From Scandinavium goeteborgense (GTDB lineage: Bacteria > Pseudomonadota > Gammaproteobacteria > Enterobacterales > Enterobacteriaceae): a DNA stretch of 64,000 nucleotides. The position numbers were made by a program, and so were the translations under genes. Positions within the stretch are counted from its first letter, which is position 1; each line of letters starts with the position of its first letter. This document shows positions 29,902-36,564 of the stretch, piece after piece. The notes under the pieces are model-generated. The model was not told the DNA's origin, did no database searches, and saw only the letters and a list, made by a program, of their open reading frames with translations. The stretch lies in assembly GCF_003935895.2 (NCBI RefSeq), contig NZ_CP054058.1:2709177-2773176 (forward strand), read 5' to 3'.

Positions 29902-30932
29902 AAAAAATGCTTGCCGCCGCGGCGCTGGTGCTCGGAATGGGTGCGGCGCACGCCGATGACAGCAAAACGCTCTATTTCTATAACTGGACCGAATACGTAC
30001 CGCCGGGCCTGCTGGAGCAATTCACCAAAGAAACCGGGATCAAGGTTATCTATTCGACCTATGAATCGAATGAAACCATGTACGCCAAGCTGAAAACCTA
30101 TAAAGACGGCGCGTACGATCTGGTGGTGCCTTCGACCTACTTTGTCGACAAAATGCGTAAAGAAGGCATGATCCAGAAGATCGACAAAAGCAAGCTGACT
30201 AACTTCAGCAATCTTGACCCGGAAATGCTGAACAAGCCGTTTGATCCGAACAACGACTATTCGATCCCGTACATCTGGGGTGCCACGGCGATTGGCGTAA
30301 ATAGCGACGCTATCGACCCGAAAACCGTCACCAGCTGGGCCGACCTGTGGAAACCAGAATATAAAGGTAGCCTGCTGCTGACCGACGATGCGCGTGAAGT
30401 TTTCCAGATTGCGCTGCGTAAACTGGGCTATTCCGGTAACACCACCGATCCAAAAGAGATTGAGGCGGCATACAAAGAGCTGCAAAAACTGATGCCTAAC
30501 GTCGCGGCGTTTAACTCCGATAACCCGGCGAACCCGTATATGGAAGGCGAAGTGAATCTGGGGATGGTGTGGAACGGTTCCGCATTCGTGGCCCGTCAGG
30601 CCGGAACGCCGCTGGAAGTGGTTTGGCCGAAAGAAGGCGGTATTTTCTGGATGGACAGCCTGGCGATTCCTGCGAATGCCAAAAACGTCGACGGCGCGCT
30701 GAAGCTGATTAACTTCCTGCTGCGCCCGGATGTCGCCAAACAGGTGGCAGAAACTATTGGCTACCCGACGCCAAACCTGGCGGCGCGTAAACTGTTGGAT
30801 CCAAAAGTCGCCAACGACAAATCGCTGTATCCGGATGCGGAAACCATTAAGAAAGGCGAATGGCAGAACGACGTCGGTGATGCCAGCCGTATCTACGAAG
30901 ATTATTACCAGAAGCTGAAAGCGGGTCGGTGA
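29898..30932 (+). CDS. potD: Spermidine/putrescine-binding protein PotD
   Basis: The periplasmic binding protein of the importer, with 344 residues. Signal peptide MKKMLAAAALVLGMGAAHA. The mature part begins DDSKTLYFYNWTEYVPPG; the acidic and aromatic binding-site motifs NWTEY, STYFVD and IWGATAIG are present. ATGA overlap with potC. A terminator follows, and then the convergent dlt operon. Confidence 0.97.
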   Translation: MKKMLAAAALVLGMGAAHADDSKTLYFYNWTEYVPPGLLEQFTKETGIKVIYSTYESNETMYAKLKTYKDGAYDLVVPSTYFVDKMRKEGMIQKIDKSKLTNFSNLDPEMLNKPFDPNNDYSIPYIWGATAIGVNSDAIDPKTVTSWADLWKPEYKGSLLLTDDAREVFQIALRKLGYSGNTTDPKEIEAAYKELQKLMPNVAAFNSDNPANPYMEGEVNLGMVWNGSAFVARQAGTPLEVVWPKEGGIFWMDSLAIPANAKNVDGALKLINFLLRPDVAKQVAETIGYPTPNLAARKLLDPKVANDKSLYPDAETIKKGEWQNDVGDASRIYEDYYQKLKAGR

Positions 30933-30951
30933 TCGCACCCTGCCCCATACC

Positions 30952-30985
30952 AAAAGCCAGAGCGCATTATGCCTCTGGCTTTTTT
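30952..30985. terminator. Terminator between potD and dltC (both directions)
   Basis: GCCAGAG-N10-CTCTGGC stem (30956-30979) with A4 before and T6 after. It serves potD on the plus strand and can stop dlt transcripts on the minus strand. Confidence 0.85.
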
Positions 30986-30996
30986 AATCGAAATGC

Positions 30997-31215
30997 CTAA
31001 CGGTTTTCTTCAATATAGGCCGCCAGACTCGCCGGCGTTTTTAATACGATGGCGACATCCGTCGGGGAAATCATGCAGCCGAACTCATCCTGAACTTCGA
31101 GTACTACATCGACGGCCATAATCGAGTCGAGAATGTCTGACTCAATAAGTTCATCATTAAAGCCAACCTTGCGGGACAGCACGCGCTCAAACAGGGCCAG
31201 TACTTGTTCTTCCAT
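30997..31215 (-). CDS. dltC: D-alanyl carrier protein DltC
   Basis: An acyl-carrier protein of 72 residues. The phosphopantetheine Ser31 lies in ESDILDSIMAVD. It is acidic and all-helical, like DltC, and carries D-alanine loaded by DltA as a thioester to the membrane enzyme DltB. Two ATGs are adjacent (31218 and 31215); GAGG stands 7 bases before the second, which is preferred. It is the last gene of the dlt operon, 18 bases after dltA. Confidence 0.85.
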   Translation of the reverse strand: MEEQVLALFERVLSRKVGFNDELIESDILDSIMAVDVVLEVQDEFGCMISPTDVAIVLKTPASLAAYIEENR

Positions 31216-31233
31216 CATCGTTCCTCAGTATCA

Positions 31234-32667
31234 TCAACTGACGCGTGCTTGCGCGTCTAACAATTTACGATCGATTTTGCCATTAGGATTCAATGGCAAT
31301 GCCTCTTTGAGCAGGATCTGACTCGGAACCATATAAGACGGAACCACCTTCGCCAGCCCTTGCTTAATTTCTTCTGCAGATAAATGAGACACGCAGAACG
31401 CCGCAATGCGTAATACAGAGCCGCCAGGTTTCATTAACGGCAGTACGACGGCGTCCTTAATCCCGGTCATGTTCAGTAACCTGGCTTCAATTTCGCTGAT
31501 TTCAATCCGATACCCGTTGAGCTTTATTTGGCTATCATTGCGGCCCATGCAGTAAAGATAATCTTGCGCAAATCCCAGGTCCCCGGTTTTATATCCCCGC
31601 CATGGCGTGTCTTCACGGGTGAGCAATTTGGCTGAGTTCTCTTCTGGCAGCCCAAGATAACCACGCATCACATTTTTCCCCCAAATGATCAGCTCACCCT
31701 CGGGAGTAATGTCCATAAAGGAATGCGGCATCATGGTGCCGATGGGCAACAGATCTAATTCACTGGCCATCATCTCATCGGTGATTTCTACCACCGTGGT
31801 TGCCACGGTAGCTTCCGTTGGTCCGTAGGAATTCATGATTTTTGCATTCGGGAAGCGTCGGCGTAACTGCTTCACCAGTGCCTTATTCAGCACTTCCCCA
31901 ATAAAGACAAAGACGGAAAGATCGGGCAAAAACTCACTATTGAACTGGGGTGAAAGAAGTTTCTGATACGCAAACGAAGGAGTGGAAATCCACGTAGACA
32001 CTTTTTTCAGACGCAGCGAATCCAGCCATGATTCAGCGGCAATAGCCTCTTTTGCATTCAGCACGATATGGCCACTTTTCGCTAAATTGGCCAGCAGCGG
32101 AATAAGCGATAAGTCAAAACTGAATACCGCATGATTCATCAGAACCGGAGCTTCTGGCAGAGAAAAAGAATCGCCAACCCATTGAATGAAATTCCACACT
32201 GACTCCCTGCCAATTTGCACACCTTTAGGCTTACCGGTACTCCCCGAGGTAAACATCATGTACGCCAACTGACTTTCTTGCAGAGGTTTGGCTGCCACGC
32301 CGGTATTCATAAATGACTGCTGTGCTACGTCATAGTAATAAGGTGCGTGCGCAAGAGTGCAGATTTCTTTCAGGCGTTCGGTCGGATAAATGCAATCAAC
32401 AGGAATGTAGGTGATGCCGTGCAGAAGACAACTGTAAATAGCCACTGCAAATTCAGTTTGCTGATGACCGTATAACACGACAGGCACATGAGGATGCGAT
32501 ACGAACGCATGATAGCGGTTCATCCAGTCGGTCACCGCCATGCTGAGTTCAGACCACGTTAACTCGCCATCGCTACCACTGACTGCAAGTTGTCCTGGCC
32601 GCACGGGATCCAGTAATGTTTTACGCAAGTAATCCTGCAAAGCCTGGATATCATGTTGAAGATTCAT
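31234..32667 (-). CDS. dltA: D-alanine-carrier protein ligase DltA
   Basis: Activates D-alanine with ATP and loads it on DltC. A protein of 477 residues of the adenylation (ANL) family. Core motifs in order: FTSGSTGKPKG (ATP loop), NSYGPTEATVATT, YKTGDLG, GRNDSQIKLNGYRIE (hinge), and NPNGKIDRKLL with the catalytic Lys near the C-terminus. The start at 32667 makes an ATGA overlap with dltB; the upstream frame to 32763 is out-of-frame dltB. Substrate choice of D-Ala is inferred from the operon. Confidence 0.9.
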   Translation of the reverse strand: MNLQHDIQALQDYLRKTLLDPVRPGQLAVSGSDGELTWSELSMAVTDWMNRYHAFVSHPHVPVVLYGHQQTEFAVAIYSCLLHGITYIPVDCIYPTERLKEICTLAHAPYYYDVAQQSFMNTGVAAKPLQESQLAYMMFTSGSTGKPKGVQIGRESVWNFIQWVGDSFSLPEAPVLMNHAVFSFDLSLIPLLANLAKSGHIVLNAKEAIAAESWLDSLRLKKVSTWISTPSFAYQKLLSPQFNSEFLPDLSVFVFIGEVLNKALVKQLRRRFPNAKIMNSYGPTEATVATTVVEITDEMMASELDLLPIGTMMPHSFMDITPEGELIIWGKNVMRGYLGLPEENSAKLLTREDTPWRGYKTGDLGFAQDYLYCMGRNDSQIKLNGYRIEISEIEARLLNMTGIKDAVVLPLMKPGGSVLRIAAFCVSHLSAEEIKQGLAKVVPSYMVPSQILLKEALPLNPNGKIDRKLLDAQARVS

Positions 32668-33782
32668 AACGGTGACATTCCACTGAAGATGTAGAGAGAA
32701 ATAGCTGCGCTTGCCAACGTTAAAAACCGACCGCACAGCGATACAACCGGGTATTTCAACCACTGCTCAAGCAAGGGTTGCCTTTTTGCCGACCATAACA
32801 GCATGTTGTGAGAGACCGAAATCAGGCCAAAGAGAATACCGCTAATCACATAGTGTCTCTCAAGCCCGTTCCAGGCGCCCATGCAAAACAGCGTGCAGAA
32901 TATACCGATGTTTTGCGCACAGGTTTTGTTGTTACGGAAGAACGTAAATCTCAATAAATGCATATACACAGGCATGAAAATAACGTCCCGGAGCCATTCA
33001 GAAAGACTGATGTGGAAACGACGCCAGAAGTCCTGCGGGTTCTTGGCCAACAAAGGGATAGTAAAGTTCTGCGGGATATTGAGACCAAAAAGACGCCCGG
33101 CCCCAATCGCCATGTTGCTGTATCCTGCGAAATCAAAATAGAGATAGAAGCTATAAGCCACGGACATCACAATCCCGACCGTCAGCGTAAAATCTTGATG
33201 GCGCCAGTGGCTGATCACGTAGTGGTCAATGAGCATGGCAAACAAAAACTTTTGCACAATGCCATAGAAAATTTGCTGCATCGACTGCAGAAAAAGTTCG
33301 GTGGTCATGGAGAAAGCGGGTTTGCGGATATCTTTCGCCCACGTATTCCAGCGATACATCGGTCCAGCAAGGATCACGAAGGGCAAAAAAAGATAACAAA
33401 AATAGATGATGAAACTTTTGGCATCTTCTTTTTTGCGATACAGCAGCACATCGATTGCGCGGAAGGTCATAAATGATAAGCCAATCATGCCCCAATGATT
33501 GTTCAGATGCAGTTTGACCAGAATTAAAGGCAATAACGTCAGACTGACCGCCTGCCAGGTTTTCAGGTACTTTTTGTCTTTAAGGTACGTCACGGCATAA
33601 AAACAAAGAAAAACAGCGATTGGGATAAAAAACTGACCACGGAAAACGTGCGCCCAGCCAATAAGGGCAATCACCGAAAATGAAACCAGATAGGTCAGGC
33701 GGTACTTTAAAAATCGATTTATCCCCGCAAAGAGCAGTGCTGAGGAGAATAAATAAACAAAAAATGACGCGTTCGAATACAT
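32664..33782 (-). CDS. dltB: MBOAT-family D-alanyl transfer protein DltB
   Basis: A membrane protein of 372 residues with about 10-12 hydrophobic segments. MBOAT motifs are clear: YLYFDFAGYSNMAIGAGRLFG (about 214-233) and DFWRRFHISLSEWLRD (251-266, His257). The second motif, normally W-H-G-L, reads MGAWNGLERHY with Asn305 (codon 32868-32870), where the catalytic His of DltB and AlgI is expected. It moves D-Ala from DltC across or onto the membrane partner. The ATG at 33782 is used; a TTG at 33812 overlaps dltX. Lower GC than its neighbours. Confidence 0.88.
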   Translation of the reverse strand: MYSNASFFVYLFSSALLFAGINRFLKYRLTYLVSFSVIALIGWAHVFRGQFFIPIAVFLCFYAVTYLKDKKYLKTWQAVSLTLLPLILVKLHLNNHWGMIGLSFMTFRAIDVLLYRKKEDAKSFIIYFCYLFLPFVILAGPMYRWNTWAKDIRKPAFSMTTELFLQSMQQIFYGIVQKFLFAMLIDHYVISHWRHQDFTLTVGIVMSVAYSFYLYFDFAGYSNMAIGAGRLFGLNIPQNFTIPLLAKNPQDFWRRFHISLSEWLRDVIFMPVYMHLLRFTFFRNNKTCAQNIGIFCTLFCMGAWNGLERHYVISGILFGLISVSHNMLLWSAKRQPLLEQWLKYPVVSLCGRFLTLASAAISLYIFSGMSPL

Positions 33783-33792
33783 AGTGACACCA

Positions 33793-33915
33793 TCAAAATT
33801 GCTGATACTCAAACTGGACTTTCAGTTTCGCTGAGTCATTTGACGTCGACCAGGCGACAATTGTCAGCGCCAGGCAAAAATAGAGCAGAAACAGGCAGAT
33901 TGCTTTCTTAATCAT
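33793..33915 (-). CDS. dltX: DltX-like microprotein (40 residues)
   Basis: A protein of 40 residues: MIKK, one membrane helix (about residues 5-22, rich in Leu, Phe and Ala), a short outer tail, and the C-terminal end FEYQQF. Gram-positive DltX has the same plan and ends in F-x-Y-x-x-F (for example FIYNEF, as I recall), whose Tyr takes part in D-Ala transfer between DltB and DltD. It starts inside the dltD stop (ATGA) and ends 10 bases before the dltB ATG. This position matches the dltDXBAC order of soft-rot enterobacteria. Recognition rests on topology, tail motif and position. Confidence 0.85.
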   Translation of the reverse strand: MIKKAICLFLLYFCLALTIVAWSTSNDSAKLKVQFEYQQF

Positions 33916-35048
33916 TTGAATTGCTCGTAGACAAAGTGGTCCATATCAACCCAAGCCAGGTCGGTTGGATGAAGATAATCCTTGTTCCAGCCGTTCTGAT
34001 AAGGCATTTCATACATGTCGTAATAAGGCACCTGGTATTCTTTCAGCGTCGATTTAACAATCTCGTCGGCCTGCTTATATCTTTCCCGATGATTGATAGC
34101 CCATGGGTTCATCGGATCAACAATCGCAATCACCTGTACATGGTGATCATGCAGCATCTTAATCATCTTTTTAAATGCTACGATCTGTTCCTGGGCTGGA
34201 GGTCGTGAACTCCAGTCAAAAGGCTTCGGACGTGCTTTGAAGTACTCGGGTGTCATCCAGTGGGTCGCTGCAGTTATCTTGCGCTCTTTATTATATTCCC
34301 GCGCTTGTTGTCGCTGGCTCTCCCAATCGACGACTTCAAACTTGCCAGCAGACGATGGCCATGATTCAGGCTGAGCTTTGTTTAACTGAATTTGTTCCTT
34401 ATAAAAATCTCGCGCCAGATCGCAAAATGAGCCCATTTGCCAGGACATCTCTTTCTTGATGTCGCTGATATTCCAGCCTCGAATTTGCATTTGGCTGAAT
34501 GACAAATGACTGATTTTATCCCCGCGCGTCATCTCCAGATATTGCGTAACGACAGGAGCGACCTCACGGTTGTTAAGCAAAGGATCAAACACATCGGCAG
34601 GCAAATTATCTTCGAATATCTTCGGCGGTACTTTAGGCCTGAAAAAGCTGTCCGGTGACAGCAGCAGCACCAATTGAGTCTTGCTGTTGAGGTCCTGTTT
34701 AAAACGAGATAACAGCGAATATTGAATAACGCTGTCTACCATCACGCCGCCATAGGCCACCACCGGAATATGAAGATTCTGGTTAAAGTAATTAAATATC
34801 GCATGAGGTTCTTCACCAGACCATATGACCTCTGACGCGCCCAGAAAGAAAATCGCATTCCCCTGCAAAGCATGAGAAATTGTCATCATTTTTTCGTTCT
34901 GCTCTTTGCGTGTTCCTACCATCGTGTTAATCAACGGTTGAAACTTTAAAACCGAATGATCACCGCTAATCAATGGGGGTAACGACAATACCAGAACTGC
35001 TGCCAATGCCATGGAGACATGCAGAAGAATATCTTTATTAATCTTCAT
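33912..35048 (-). CDS. dltD: D-alanyl transfer protein DltD
   Basis: A protein of 378 residues. One N-terminal membrane anchor (about 8-28) is followed by an extracytoplasmic SGNH/GDSL-like hydrolase domain. The nucleophile motif LGASEV has Ser72. The C-terminal DYLHPTDLAWVD supplies the Asp and His. DltD passes D-Ala to the final acceptor in Gram-positives; here the acceptor is unknown. It is the first gene of the operon. The ribosome site is weak (CTCTTTTTATT before the ATG). Just upstream, GTTGATAAGTTAATGTTTAA on the plus strand loosely resembles ArcA-type GTTAA repeats. Confidence 0.85.
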   Translation of the reverse strand: MKINKDILLHVSMALAAVLVLSLPPLISGDHSVLKFQPLINTMVGTRKEQNEKMMTISHALQGNAIFFLGASEVIWSGEEPHAIFNYFNQNLHIPVVAYGGVMVDSVIQYSLLSRFKQDLNSKTQLVLLLSPDSFFRPKVPPKIFEDNLPADVFDPLLNNREVAPVVTQYLEMTRGDKISHLSFSQMQIRGWNISDIKKEMSWQMGSFCDLARDFYKEQIQLNKAQPESWPSSAGKFEVVDWESQRQQAREYNKERKITAATHWMTPEYFKARPKPFDWSSRPPAQEQIVAFKKMIKMLHDHHVQVIAIVDPMNPWAINHRERYKQADEIVKSTLKEYQVPYYDMYEMPYQNGWNKDYLHPTDLAWVDMDHFVYEQFK

Positions 35049-35742
35049 AATAAAAAGAGTTGATAAGTTAATGTTTAAAGTTTGTTTTATTTTAAAGCCT
35101 AACCGTCAGCCTGCTATTTTTAACGCGAAAACACTTTAACGCATAAGGCATTTTTTGTATGTAACCATATGTACACCGTTAGAATAAACAATAAAACACA
35201 ATGTACCAGAGATTATTTTCGTCTTTCTTTTAGTGTACTACCATTATCCAGCTAATAAATAAACATTCCTAAACAGTCCCTCTACAACGATTATTTACAG
35301 CATAAAATGTCGATGACTAGATTTTTTTCAGCCGTTAAAAGAGTATTTCGTTAAATTCACAGCCGTACATTACTCTGTTGTCATACCAAAAATGATGAAC
35401 AGAAGGACTTAATTTTACTCTGATAACAATTTTGCAATCTTAATGTCATCAGCACTTCGATATTTGCTACCAAACATGCCTACATGTAACTAATTAATAA
35501 TAAACATTGATGACATTGATAAATAAATATTGTGAATGGGCGTTTTCATACGAAGCTATTTACATCGTGATACGAAGCCCAGCAAGCCTTGTGGGTGACG
35601 TTTGGGGTACGGGGATTTTTTATTCGGATGTATGAATCGCGCATTTGCATGCAAGCAGGTGACAAGAATGGGTGAGAAACGAGGGTGTTCAGGCAGTAGC
35701 GCGTGGCACTGCCTGAGTTACAGCGGCAAAAAAGCTGACGTC
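35049..35742. other. AT-rich intergenic region between dltD and cobB
   Basis: 694 bases, clearly richer in A and T than the core genes around, as in many H-NS-bound acquired islands. Beyond the candidate dlt promoter it holds a TCAGGCAGT-N10-ACTGCCTGA hairpin (35689-35716) that probably ends cobB transcripts, and the palindrome TTGCATGCAA (35645-35654). No credible gene was found; a plus-strand frame from 35602 is mainly antisense to cobB. Confidence 0.5.
35243..35275 (-). promoter_or_regulatory. Candidate promoter of the dlt operon with PhoP-box-like repeat
   Basis: Read on the minus strand, TGTTTA-GGAA-TGTTTA (35275-35260) is a direct repeat of the PhoP half-site. After 11 bases it is followed by GATAAT (35248-35243). 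PhoP boxes usually lie about this far before the -10. The spacer is 4 rather than the usual 5 bases, so the call is tentative. It would give a leader of about 190 bases before dltD. Confidence 0.4.
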
Positions 35743-36564
35743 CTACAACCCTTTCAGCAGCTTCGCCACATACTCGGGAACGACGTCACTCGCCAGGCCG
35801 TAGTGTTTTTCTTCGAACTCACTGCCGACCTGGCTCGGTTCGAGATTGAGTTCAACGGTGTGCGCGCCCTGCAGTTTCGCTTCGTGCACGAACCCGGCAG
35901 CCGGGTAGACATGTCCGGAGGTGCCGATAGCGATAAACTCATCGGCCATCGCCAGCGCTTCGTAAATCTCGTCCATGCCGAGCGGCATTTCACCGAACCA
36001 CACCACGTGCGGACGCAGCGGCTGCGGGAACTGGCAGCAGTGGCATTTGTCGTCAACGGTCACATCCCCCGTCCACTCAAAAACTTGTCCACTCCAGTCA
36101 CAGCGCACCTTTAATAATTCGCCGTGCATATGAATAATGCGCTTGTTCCCTGCCCGCTCGTGCAGATTGTCGATATTCTGCGTCACCAACAGGAAGCGAT
36201 CACCCAGCTCTTCTTCCAGCTTCGCCAGCGCCAGATGCGCTGCATTCGGCTGAATGTCGGGCTGCTGGAGTTGCTGGCGACGGGCGTTATAAAACGCCTG
36301 TACCAGCGCCGGGTCACGGGCGAAACCTTCCGGCGTCGCCACGTCTTCGACGCGGTGTTCTTCCCATAAACCGTCGGTTGCGCGGAACGTGCGGATCCCG
36401 GATTCGGCAGAGATCCCCGCCCCGGTCAGCACCACCACTCTGGGTTTAACCATCCCTTCAGGCACCGCTCTGTCTCTGAAGAAAACCCGCTGGCGCAAAC
36501 GATCGTGCAGGCGGCGTTTAGTAAGGCGAAAACGACTGAGTCGATGGAAGCGACGCGACTGCAT
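35743..36564 (-). CDS. cobB: NAD-dependent protein deacylase CobB (sirtuin)
   Basis: Removes acetyl and succinyl groups from lysines using NAD+. A protein of 273 residues including the basic N-terminal extension ([18 protein letters not shown]) of the long CobB form. [14 protein letters not shown] binds [15 protein letters not shown] holds the active site, and HMHGELL holds the catalytic His. Zinc cysteines lie in VRCDWSG and CHCCQ. AGGGG precedes the ATG at 36564; upstream codons are nagK sequence. It lies 13 bases after nagK. Confidence 0.96.

What the first reader, a model, noticed from the sequence alone, without database searches (positions are those of the whole stretch)
33793..33915. 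Hidden 40-residue DltX with intact F-x-Y-x-x-F tail
The gap between dltD and dltB encodes MIKK, one membrane helix and the end FEYQQF. In Gram-positives the conserved DltX C-terminal Tyr motif is needed to relay D-Ala from DltB to DltD. Keeping the motif in a Gram-negative operon suggests that the same acyl relay works here. The gene is too short for usual calling and starts in the dltD stop codon (ATGA).
Basis: partly seen in the sequence, partly recalled or inferred. Interest (0 to 1): 0.8.

Follow-up and report, generated by a model that had tools for sequence, protein, structure and literature searches.

The report
DltX-like acyl shuttle, altered DltB partner
A tiny real gene in an enterobacterium makes a peptide that probably hands an amino acid across the membrane as in Gram-positive bacteria, but its enzyme partner lacks the histidine thought to be universal in that enzyme family.

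Summary
The ORF is real: minus strand 33915-33793, 40 codons, start overlapping the dltD stop (ATGA), one predicted membrane helix, end FEYQQF. All 41 dltB loci found by a DltB-only search have the tail between dltD and dltB. The frame is under purifying selection (median dN/dS 0.11; 1.1 and 3.0 in the other frames). DltB has no tail of its own, so a DltX-like relay is the best reading. It is not really hidden: its homologue on plasmids is annotated as a hypothetical protein, and I recall a paper, not held here, naming enterobacterial dltDXBAC operons. It does not match DltX profiles; only architecture, position and tail agree.

The relay cannot be quite the same. DltB residue 305, the place of the "invariant" MBOAT histidine, is Asn in 43 of 43 relatives, but His in 7 of 7 Gram-positive DltBs and 30 of 30 other MBOATs. 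The residue before the tail Tyr is Glu in 44 of 44, but Ile or Leu in 32 of 32 other MBOAT tails. DltA's Cys269 equivalent is Ile in 40 of 40. A Dickeya dltB mutant survives polymyxin less well (PMC3544676), so this DltB type probably works.

The parts
33793..33915 (-). dltX-like gene, 40 aa, MIKK...FEYQQF
   Evidence: tail present in 41 of 41 dltB loci, complete 39-40 codon ORF in 40; dN/dS 0.11
33912..33915 (-). ATGA overlap of the dltD stop and dltX start
   Evidence: overlap of 4 nt in 37 and 1 nt in 3 of 40 loci (L052 left out)
33847..33903 (-). predicted membrane helix of DltX, residues 5-23
   Evidence: Mean Kyte-Doolittle 2.34 over 19 residues; helix and N-in/C-out topology inferred
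33796..33813 (-). C-terminal FEYQQF, residues 35-40; Tyr37 codon 33805-33807, Glu36 codon 33808-33810
   Evidence: the line labelled Y38 is my miscount; Tyr is residue 37; FEYQ[KQ]F in 44 of 44
33912..35048 (-). dltD, 378 aa; Ser72 34833-34835, Asp357 33978-33980, His360 33969-33971
   Evidence: PF04914 81.3 bits over cut-off 22.7; below the TIGR04092 equivalog cut-off (53.2 of 150 bits); residues
32664..33782 (-). dltB, 372 aa, MBOAT without its own FxYxxF tail
   Evidence: PF03062 37.5 bits over cut-off 27; TIGR04091 202.1 bits, below cut-off 375; S. thermophilus DltB 6bug E 1e-32
32868..32870 (-). DltB Asn305 codon (AAC), at the position of S. thermophilus His336
33012..33014 (-). DltB His257 codon, at the position of S. 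thermophilus His289, kept
33495..33509 (-). DltB His92 (33507-33509) and His96 (33495-33497), invariant in 43 of 43, absent from 6 aligned Gram-positive DltBs
31234..32667 (-). dltA, 477 aa; Ile256 (31900-31902) at the position of B. cereus Cys269; ATGA overlap with dltB stop
   Evidence: TIGR01734 352.6 bits, below cut-off 559.85
30997..31218 (-). dltC, 73 aa carrier protein; Ser32 (31123-31125)
   Evidence: PF00550 36.8 bits over cut-off 20.8, below NCBIfam cut-offs; LDS motif in 40 of 40 Gram-negative and 5 of 5 Gram-positive

Best explanation
33915-33793 encodes a working DltX-like membrane peptide of a chromosomal dltDXBAC operon. DltA loads a small amino acid, probably D-Ala, on DltC; DltB moves it through the membrane onto Tyr37 of the peptide's periplasmic tail; the tail delivers it to Ser72 of DltD, which esterifies an unknown envelope target and lowers negative charge. 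It works like DltX, but the DltB step uses a changed active site: Asn305 replaces the usual catalytic His, with His257 kept and new invariant residues (DltB His92 and His96, DltX Glu36) as candidate replacements for the base. Shown: coding, conservation, synteny, residue identities. Inferred: translation, topology, acyl-Tyr, the acyl group, the route and the target.
For: Coding and purifying selection: 43 sequences, 37 distinct; median dN/dS 0.11 over the 473 of 666 pairs that were neither near-identical nor saturated, pooled pN/pS 0.22 over all pairs; both other frames carry stops in 37 of 37 (pair total). The search that brought in the loci used DltB only, yet 41 of 41 carry the FEYQ[KQ]F tail just upstream of dltB. 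DltB lacks a tail in 43 of 43, whereas 32 of 33 other MBOATs end in their own F[IL]Y tail. Helix end to C-terminus is 17 residues here and 18 in 3 of 3 Gram-positive DltX measured. DltD Ser and Asp-x-x-His kept in 41 of 41, DltC Ser in 40 of 40. An acyl-Tyr shuttle is published for DltX and PatA (PMC12148441 passages). A D. dadantii dltB mutant has lower polymyxin survival (PMC3544676 passages), and both Dickeya DltBs held here have Asn305 (L029, L044).
Against: No DltX profile match: Pfam and NCBIfam give none, PF12459 run on the own genome does not find it, reciprocal HMMs between Gram-negative and three Gram-positive DltX stay at background and hhalign gives E 0.085 at a probability of 0.4%. 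The His shown to be needed in PatA, and cited there as needed in DltB, is Asn here. All four larger proteins score below the NCBIfam cut-offs for Gram-positive Dlt proteins. I recall that a D. dadantii dltD mutant was not polymyxin-sensitive (Pandin 2016, not seen), which would fit the relay poorly. The D. dadantii dltB mutant is an insertion and could be polar on dltA and dltC. No expression or product data were available.
Confidence: 0.8

Rival explanations
1. The peptide is a conserved structural or assembly subunit that holds DltB and DltD together; the Tyr packs in the DltB funnel and is not acylated, and DltB passes the acyl group on directly.
For: PMC11035591 (passages) suggests DltX may regulate DltB and calls its role unclear; the His needed to load the Tyr in PatA is absent here.
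Against: The terminal Tyr and both Phe are invariant in 44 of 44 while most of the rest of the peptide varies; PatA and DltX work reports acyl-Tyr.
Confidence: 0.1
2. DltB of this clade is a pseudo-acyltransferase; the operon serves another purpose and the tail is a relic.
For: Asn in place of the otherwise universal His in 43 of 43; a second Gram-positive His (window position 318) is Phe in 43 of 43.
Against: dltX is under purifying selection; Asn305, His257, His92 and His96 are fixed while their codons vary synonymously; a dltB mutant has a polymyxin phenotype in Dickeya.
Confidence: 0.08
3. The relay works but carries a different acyl group, such as glycine, not D-Ala.
For: DltA Cys269, a major determinant of D-Ala selectivity (PMC4176424 and PMC11253843 passages), is Ile in 40 of 40; V. 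cholerae AlmE is a related ligase that loads Gly for LPS.
Against: Asp197 and Leu198 equivalents are kept in 40 of 40; in NCBIfam the best models are DltA models, though below cut-off; in the PDB the top hit is linear gramicidin synthase with DltA just behind; a bulkier Ile should still bar L-amino acids (inference).
Confidence: 0.2
4. The ORF is a chance reading frame in the dltD-dltB gap.
For: Very short; no family match.
Confidence: 0.01

Closest known systems
DltX of Gram-positive dltXABCD operons (PF12459)
   Same: Short single-helix peptide of a dlt operon; near-equal helix-to-end distance (17 versus 18 residues); ends in an aromatic-x-Y-x-x-F tail; partner DltB has no tail.
   Different: No profile match; gene order D-X-B-A-C instead of X-A-B-C-D; the residue before the Tyr is Glu instead of Ile (4 of 4 Gram-positive DltX seen here: FIYNEF three times, YIYNDF once) or Leu (FLYFGF quoted in PMC11035591).
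dltDXBAC operons of Dickeya and Pectobacterium (Pandin et al. 2016; name recalled, text not held)
   Same: Same operon and gene order; members are in the alignment (L018, L020, L022-L025, L027, L029, L037, L044, L046, L050, L054).
   Different: Host lineage only; this is the same kind, so the presence of dltX here is not new.
PatA/AlgI-type MBOATs with an SGNH partner
   Same: MBOAT plus SGNH pair and F-x-Y-x-x-F shuttle motif (PMC12148441 passages).
   Different: Motif is fused to the MBOAT C-terminus; GxWHG His present in 30 of 30 taken from the order and class searches; PatA uses acetyl-CoA, no carrier protein.
AlmE of Vibrio cholerae (from PMC11253843 passages)
   Same: DltA-like ligase serving an envelope modification in a Gram-negative.
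   Different: Loads glycine; its pocket keeps a Cys (C316), this clade has Ile; I did not compare the transferases.

Membership tests
DltX (PF12459 / NCBIfam DltX) | Profile match above or near the curated cut-off | tested here: not met
   No hit in Pfam or NCBIfam at E up to 1; PF12459 against the own genome matches two other places at E 1.18 and 2.39, not this one, while in 14 control genomes it rings in 9 at E up to 10 and passes its cut-off in 2; local HMMs at background, although the Gram-positive HMM does find the Niallia DltX (E 2e-6)
DltX (PF12459 / NCBIfam DltX) | Encoded with dltA, dltB, dltC and dltD | tested here: met
   dltX tail in 41 of 41 dltB loci
DltX (PF12459 / NCBIfam DltX) | About 40-50 aa with one membrane helix | tested here: met
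   40 aa, residues 5-23 hydrophobic; topology not tested
DltX (PF12459 / NCBIfam DltX) | C-terminal F-x-Y-x-x-F with invariant Tyr | tested here: met
   44 of 44 FEYQ[KQ]F
DltX (PF12459 / NCBIfam DltX) | Binds DltB and DltD; Tyr carries the acyl group | not testable with these tools
   Needs biochemistry
DltB / MBOAT | MBOAT family, short form without fused tail | tested here: met
   PF03062 over cut-off; 6bug E 1e-32 over residues 2-368; no tail in 43 of 43; below TIGR04091 equivalog cut-off
DltB / MBOAT | Invariant catalytic His (S. thermophilus His336) with a second His/Asn/Asp (His289) | tested here: not met
   Asn305 in 43 of 43, also in the L052 fragment; His257 kept in 43 of 43; controls His in 7 of 7 Gram-positive DltBs and 30 of 30 other MBOATs
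DltD | PF04914 with SGNH Ser and Asp-x-x-His | tested here: met
   motifs in 41 of 41, one with FLAASE instead of F[LI]GASE
DltA as a D-Ala ligase | D-Ala pocket Asp197, Leu198, Cys269 | tested here: inconclusive
   Asp and Leu kept, Cys replaced by Ile in 40 of 40; Cys in 5 of 5 Gram-positive
D-alanylation system | D-Ala ester on an envelope polymer | not testable with these tools
   PMC3544676 (passages) says the substrate remains to be identified

The most novel reading that the evidence does not exclude
In this clade the catalytic base of an MBOAT has moved. The histidine held to be universal is Asn, and its work is done either by a residue carried on the shuttle peptide itself (Glu36, directly beside the acceptor Tyr37), or by clade-specific DltB histidines His92/His96 next to Lys90 (aligned to a Lys at the active-site gate of S. 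thermophilus DltB), or by His257 with Asn305 as a swapped His/Asn pair (the eukaryotic MBOATs listed in PMC11035591 have Asn or Asp at the first place and His at the second).
Probability: 0.4. Interest if true: 0.8.

Novelty: new variant of a known kind. Interest (0 to 1): 0.55.

Why it matters
The papers I saw treat one histidine as invariant across MBOATs (passages). A natural family, probably working in vivo, that has dispensed with it lets one ask directly what that histidine does. It also suggests that the peptide relay is kept when the enzyme chemistry changes, and warns that calling these operons D-alanylation systems rests on matches below curated cut-offs. The envelope target of the enterobacterial operons was called unidentified in PMC3544676.

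Tried and rejected
Chance ORF: rejected by the codon and tail tests. Membership of PF12459 by sequence: tested four ways, not met. Structure: AlphaFold2 of DltB on 35 of the 43 clade sequences gave mean pLDDT 58.5 and pTM 0.39; too poor, so no fold search and no distances were used. DltD in the PDB: no hit at E up to 1; DltX in the PDB: none meaningful. DltB alignment in viral contigs: no relative. G1067 (L109/L110), a weak DltD hit, is an MBOAT with GLWHG and its own FIYFQF next to another ORF, so not a dlt operon. 'DLTx' in the Bordetella hinzii paper is double-lung transplantation. His310, five places after Asn305, was considered as a replacement base but is Asn in 7 of 43. Two ORF pickers erred: three 'DltD' sequences (L031, L042, L053) were other ORFs, corrected; minus-strand loci were not turned, corrected. 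L072 lacks a tail at the end of the ORF I took; an FIYFRF lies about 1.5 kb further in the same frame, not followed.

Rows dropped before counts: L052 (frame breaks); L054 from the DltA and DltC counts because my picker found no ORF there, hence 40 and not 41; L097 was left out of the DltB alignment and checked apart (GIWHG, His present). The 30 MBOAT controls are those handed out as loci, the best-scoring part of the longer list. Gram-positive DltX was found in 4 of 7 fetched Gram-positive stretches (L093, L094, L096, L098); in L092, L095 and L097 I found none.

Literature limits: Pandin 2016 and Schultz 2023 are not held; what I say of them is recalled. All ten paper searches were read as listings, and eleven papers as passages or abstract; I make no claim that the Asn is absent from print.

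Full report
What is there. The minus strand of the window holds five tightly packed genes in the order dltD (35048-33912), dltX (33915-33793), dltB (33782-32664), dltA (32667-31234), dltC (31218-30997). DltD and the MBOAT, AMP-binding and carrier domains pass Pfam cut-offs; all four larger proteins score below the NCBIfam cut-offs for the Gram-positive Dlt proteins. The operon sits between potD and cobB (names by the E. coli match). In E. coli the same stretch is matched only in part: 3256 of 5426 genomes have a match, none with a place covering 80% of the query, and in the best listed record the matched stretch spans 2.9 kb against 7.6 kb here, over potD, cobB and nagK. The operon alone has no match in those genomes at megablast sensitivity. 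GC is 0.43-0.49 in the operon genes, 0.36 in the gap upstream of dltD, 0.53 in potD and 0.59 in cobB. This fits acquisition. Among 41 related loci only the three closest (L015-L017) show cobB, nagK and potD within the fetched flanks.

Is dltX a gene. A genome-collection scan with the DltB protein gave 41 loci. It used DltB patterns alone, so it did not select for dltX, but it reaches close relatives only. All 41 have an F-x-Y-x-x-F tail upstream of dltB: 40 as a complete 39-40 codon ORF, and L052, whose assembly has frame breaks in this region, only as a fragment. With the window and two plasmid copies this makes 44 tails, 33 FEYQKF and 11 FEYQQF. Leaving out L052, 43 sequences (37 distinct in DNA, 30 in protein) give a median pairwise dN/dS of 0.111 in frame over 473 of 666 pairs (pairs with too few or saturated synonymous differences dropped), against 1.15 and 2.98 in the other two frames, where columns with stops were dropped; pooled pN/pS in frame is 0.22; both other frames contain stops in 37 of 37. 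The invariant residues are the tail FEYQxF and a few positions further up, mostly in the helix. The dltX start overlaps dltD by 4 nt in 37 of 40 loci and by 1 nt in 3. So it is a constrained coding gene; translation itself was not measured.

Is it new or hidden. The homologue on three plasmid records is annotated as a hypothetical protein, WP_255423173.1. PMC5541007 (passages) says dlt genes occur in Dickeya and Pectobacterium and cites Pandin 2016; I recall that paper's abstract naming dltDXBAC operons, but it is not held. Hence the presence of dltX is at most a re-discovery. The gene is uncommon in the groups sampled (own genome included in each count): 8 of 60 nearest genomes, 5 of 398 across the phylum. 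DltD by PF04914 is found in 8 of 394 of the order, one of which (G1067) proved not to be a dlt operon, and in 1 of 369 of the class, the own genome.

Is it a DltX. By position, length, single helix, helix-to-end distance (17 residues; 18 in three Gram-positive DltX) and tail, yes. By sequence profile, no: Pfam and NCBIfam give nothing, PF12459 does not find it in its own genome though it passes its cut-off in 2 of 14 control genomes, and HMMs built here from either side score the other at background level, although the Gram-positive one does find a fourth Gram-positive DltX. Forty residues carry little signal, so common origin is neither shown nor excluded. I therefore say it works like DltX and do not file it in the sequence family.

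Does the machine around it fit an acyl relay. DltB ends SLYIFSGMSP[L/V] in 43 of 43 and has no tail, whereas 32 of 33 other MBOATs examined end in their own F[IL]Y tail (the exception is L072). DltD keeps its Ser and Asp-x-x-His in 41 of 41 and DltC its Ser in 40 of 40. PMC12148441 (passages) describes the shuttle: DltB loads the Tyr of DltX, which hands the group to the Ser of DltD; in PatA the Tyr of the fused motif is acetylated.

What does not fit. The same paper calls His315 of C. jejuni PatA universally conserved in MBOATs and needed for loading the Tyr, and cites the DltB equivalent as needed. From the GxWHG His to the tail Tyr there are 135 residues in a Campylobacter MBOAT (L101) and 142 in a Citrobacter plasmid MBOAT (L100); from the RWH His there are 175 and 182. 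His315 to Tyr455 is 140, so His315 is the GxWHG His, the place of S. thermophilus DltB His336, which PMC11035591 calls invariant (passages). At this position the window DltB has Asn305. Asn is found in 43 of 43 clade members (41 distinct proteins); His in 7 of 7 Gram-positive DltBs (six aligned, L097) and in 30 of 30 MBOATs handed out by the order and class searches. The L052 fragment also reads GAWNG. The alignment around it is gapless and anchored by MGxWxG. Both Asn codons occur (26 AAC, 17 AAT). His257 (His289) is kept in 43 of 43. A further His of the six aligned Gram-positive DltBs, at window position 318, is Phe in 43 of 43. Three His are invariant in the clade and absent from the Gram-positive six: His92, His96 and His325. 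His92 and His96 follow Lys90, which I align to Lys109; PMC11035591 places Lys109 with Trp335 at the gate to His336. Nearness of His92 or His96 to the site is my inference and could not be modelled. The tail itself differs: Glu before the Tyr in 44 of 44, Ile or Leu in 32 of 32 other MBOAT tails, Ile in 4 of 4 Gram-positive DltX. DltA has Ile256 in place of Cys269 in 40 of 40, Cys in 5 of 5 Gram-positive DltAs (numbering counted on the B. cereus 3fcc chain); Cys269 is a major determinant of D-Ala over L-Ala (PMC4176424, PMC11253843 passages). All of this is one lineage, so these are not independent events and coupling between them is not shown.

Does this form of DltB work. PMC3544676 (passages) reports lower polymyxin survival of a D. 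dadantii dltB mutant, strong induction of dltBAC in aphids, no effect of the dltB mutation on aphid killing, and that the modified substrate is unidentified. I did not fetch D. dadantii itself; the two Dickeya sequences here (D. oryzae L029, D. undicola L044) have Asn305. The mutant was an insertion in an operon, so dltA and dltC may be affected too. Activity of the Asn form is therefore likely, not proven.

Verdict. The relay reading is likely right in outline and wrong in the word same: the Tyr is kept, while the enzyme residue thought to activate it is replaced in all clade members examined. That second fact is the reason to look further.

Noticed in passing
L091 (NZ_CP071862.1), L099 (NZ_CP041250.1), L090 (NZ_CP063883.1): dltDXBAC occurs on plasmids of Enterobacter and Klebsiella; the two copies seen complete (L091, L099) have insertion-sequence transposase genes on both sides, and L091 and L090 are typed as conjugative. 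DltB of L091 and L099 is 71% identical to the window's.
   Followed up: partly
window 31900-31902: DltA position of B. cereus Cys269 is Ile in 40 of 40 clade members, which leaves open which amino acid is loaded.
   Followed up: partly
window 35049-35742: AT-rich gap (GC 0.36) between cobB and dltD. In 30900-35750 promoter-like sites are no more than in shuffles (5 versus 8.4), terminator-like sites are more (11 versus 5.1, sd 2.6).
   Followed up: no
L052 (CP025776.1, Enterobacter sp. EA-1): The dlt region of this complete genome has frame breaks; a genome with a contig of the same length (G034) is rated 49% complete, which suggests assembly errors.
   Followed up: no
L015 (CACSKA010000011.1): A record titled Chryseobacterium carries the closest copy (DltB 96%, with cobB, nagK, potD and potC at 96.7-99.7%), so its name looks like a mislabel or contamination.
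   Followed up: partly
L098, 1628 on: An unannotated Niallia megaplasmid stretch encodes a 48-residue DltX ending YIYNDF, so the first aromatic of the tail can be Tyr in Gram-positives.
   Followed up: no
L072: An MBOAT with GFWHG whose taken ORF lacks the tail; an FIYFRF lies about 1.5 kb further in the same frame.
   Followed up: no
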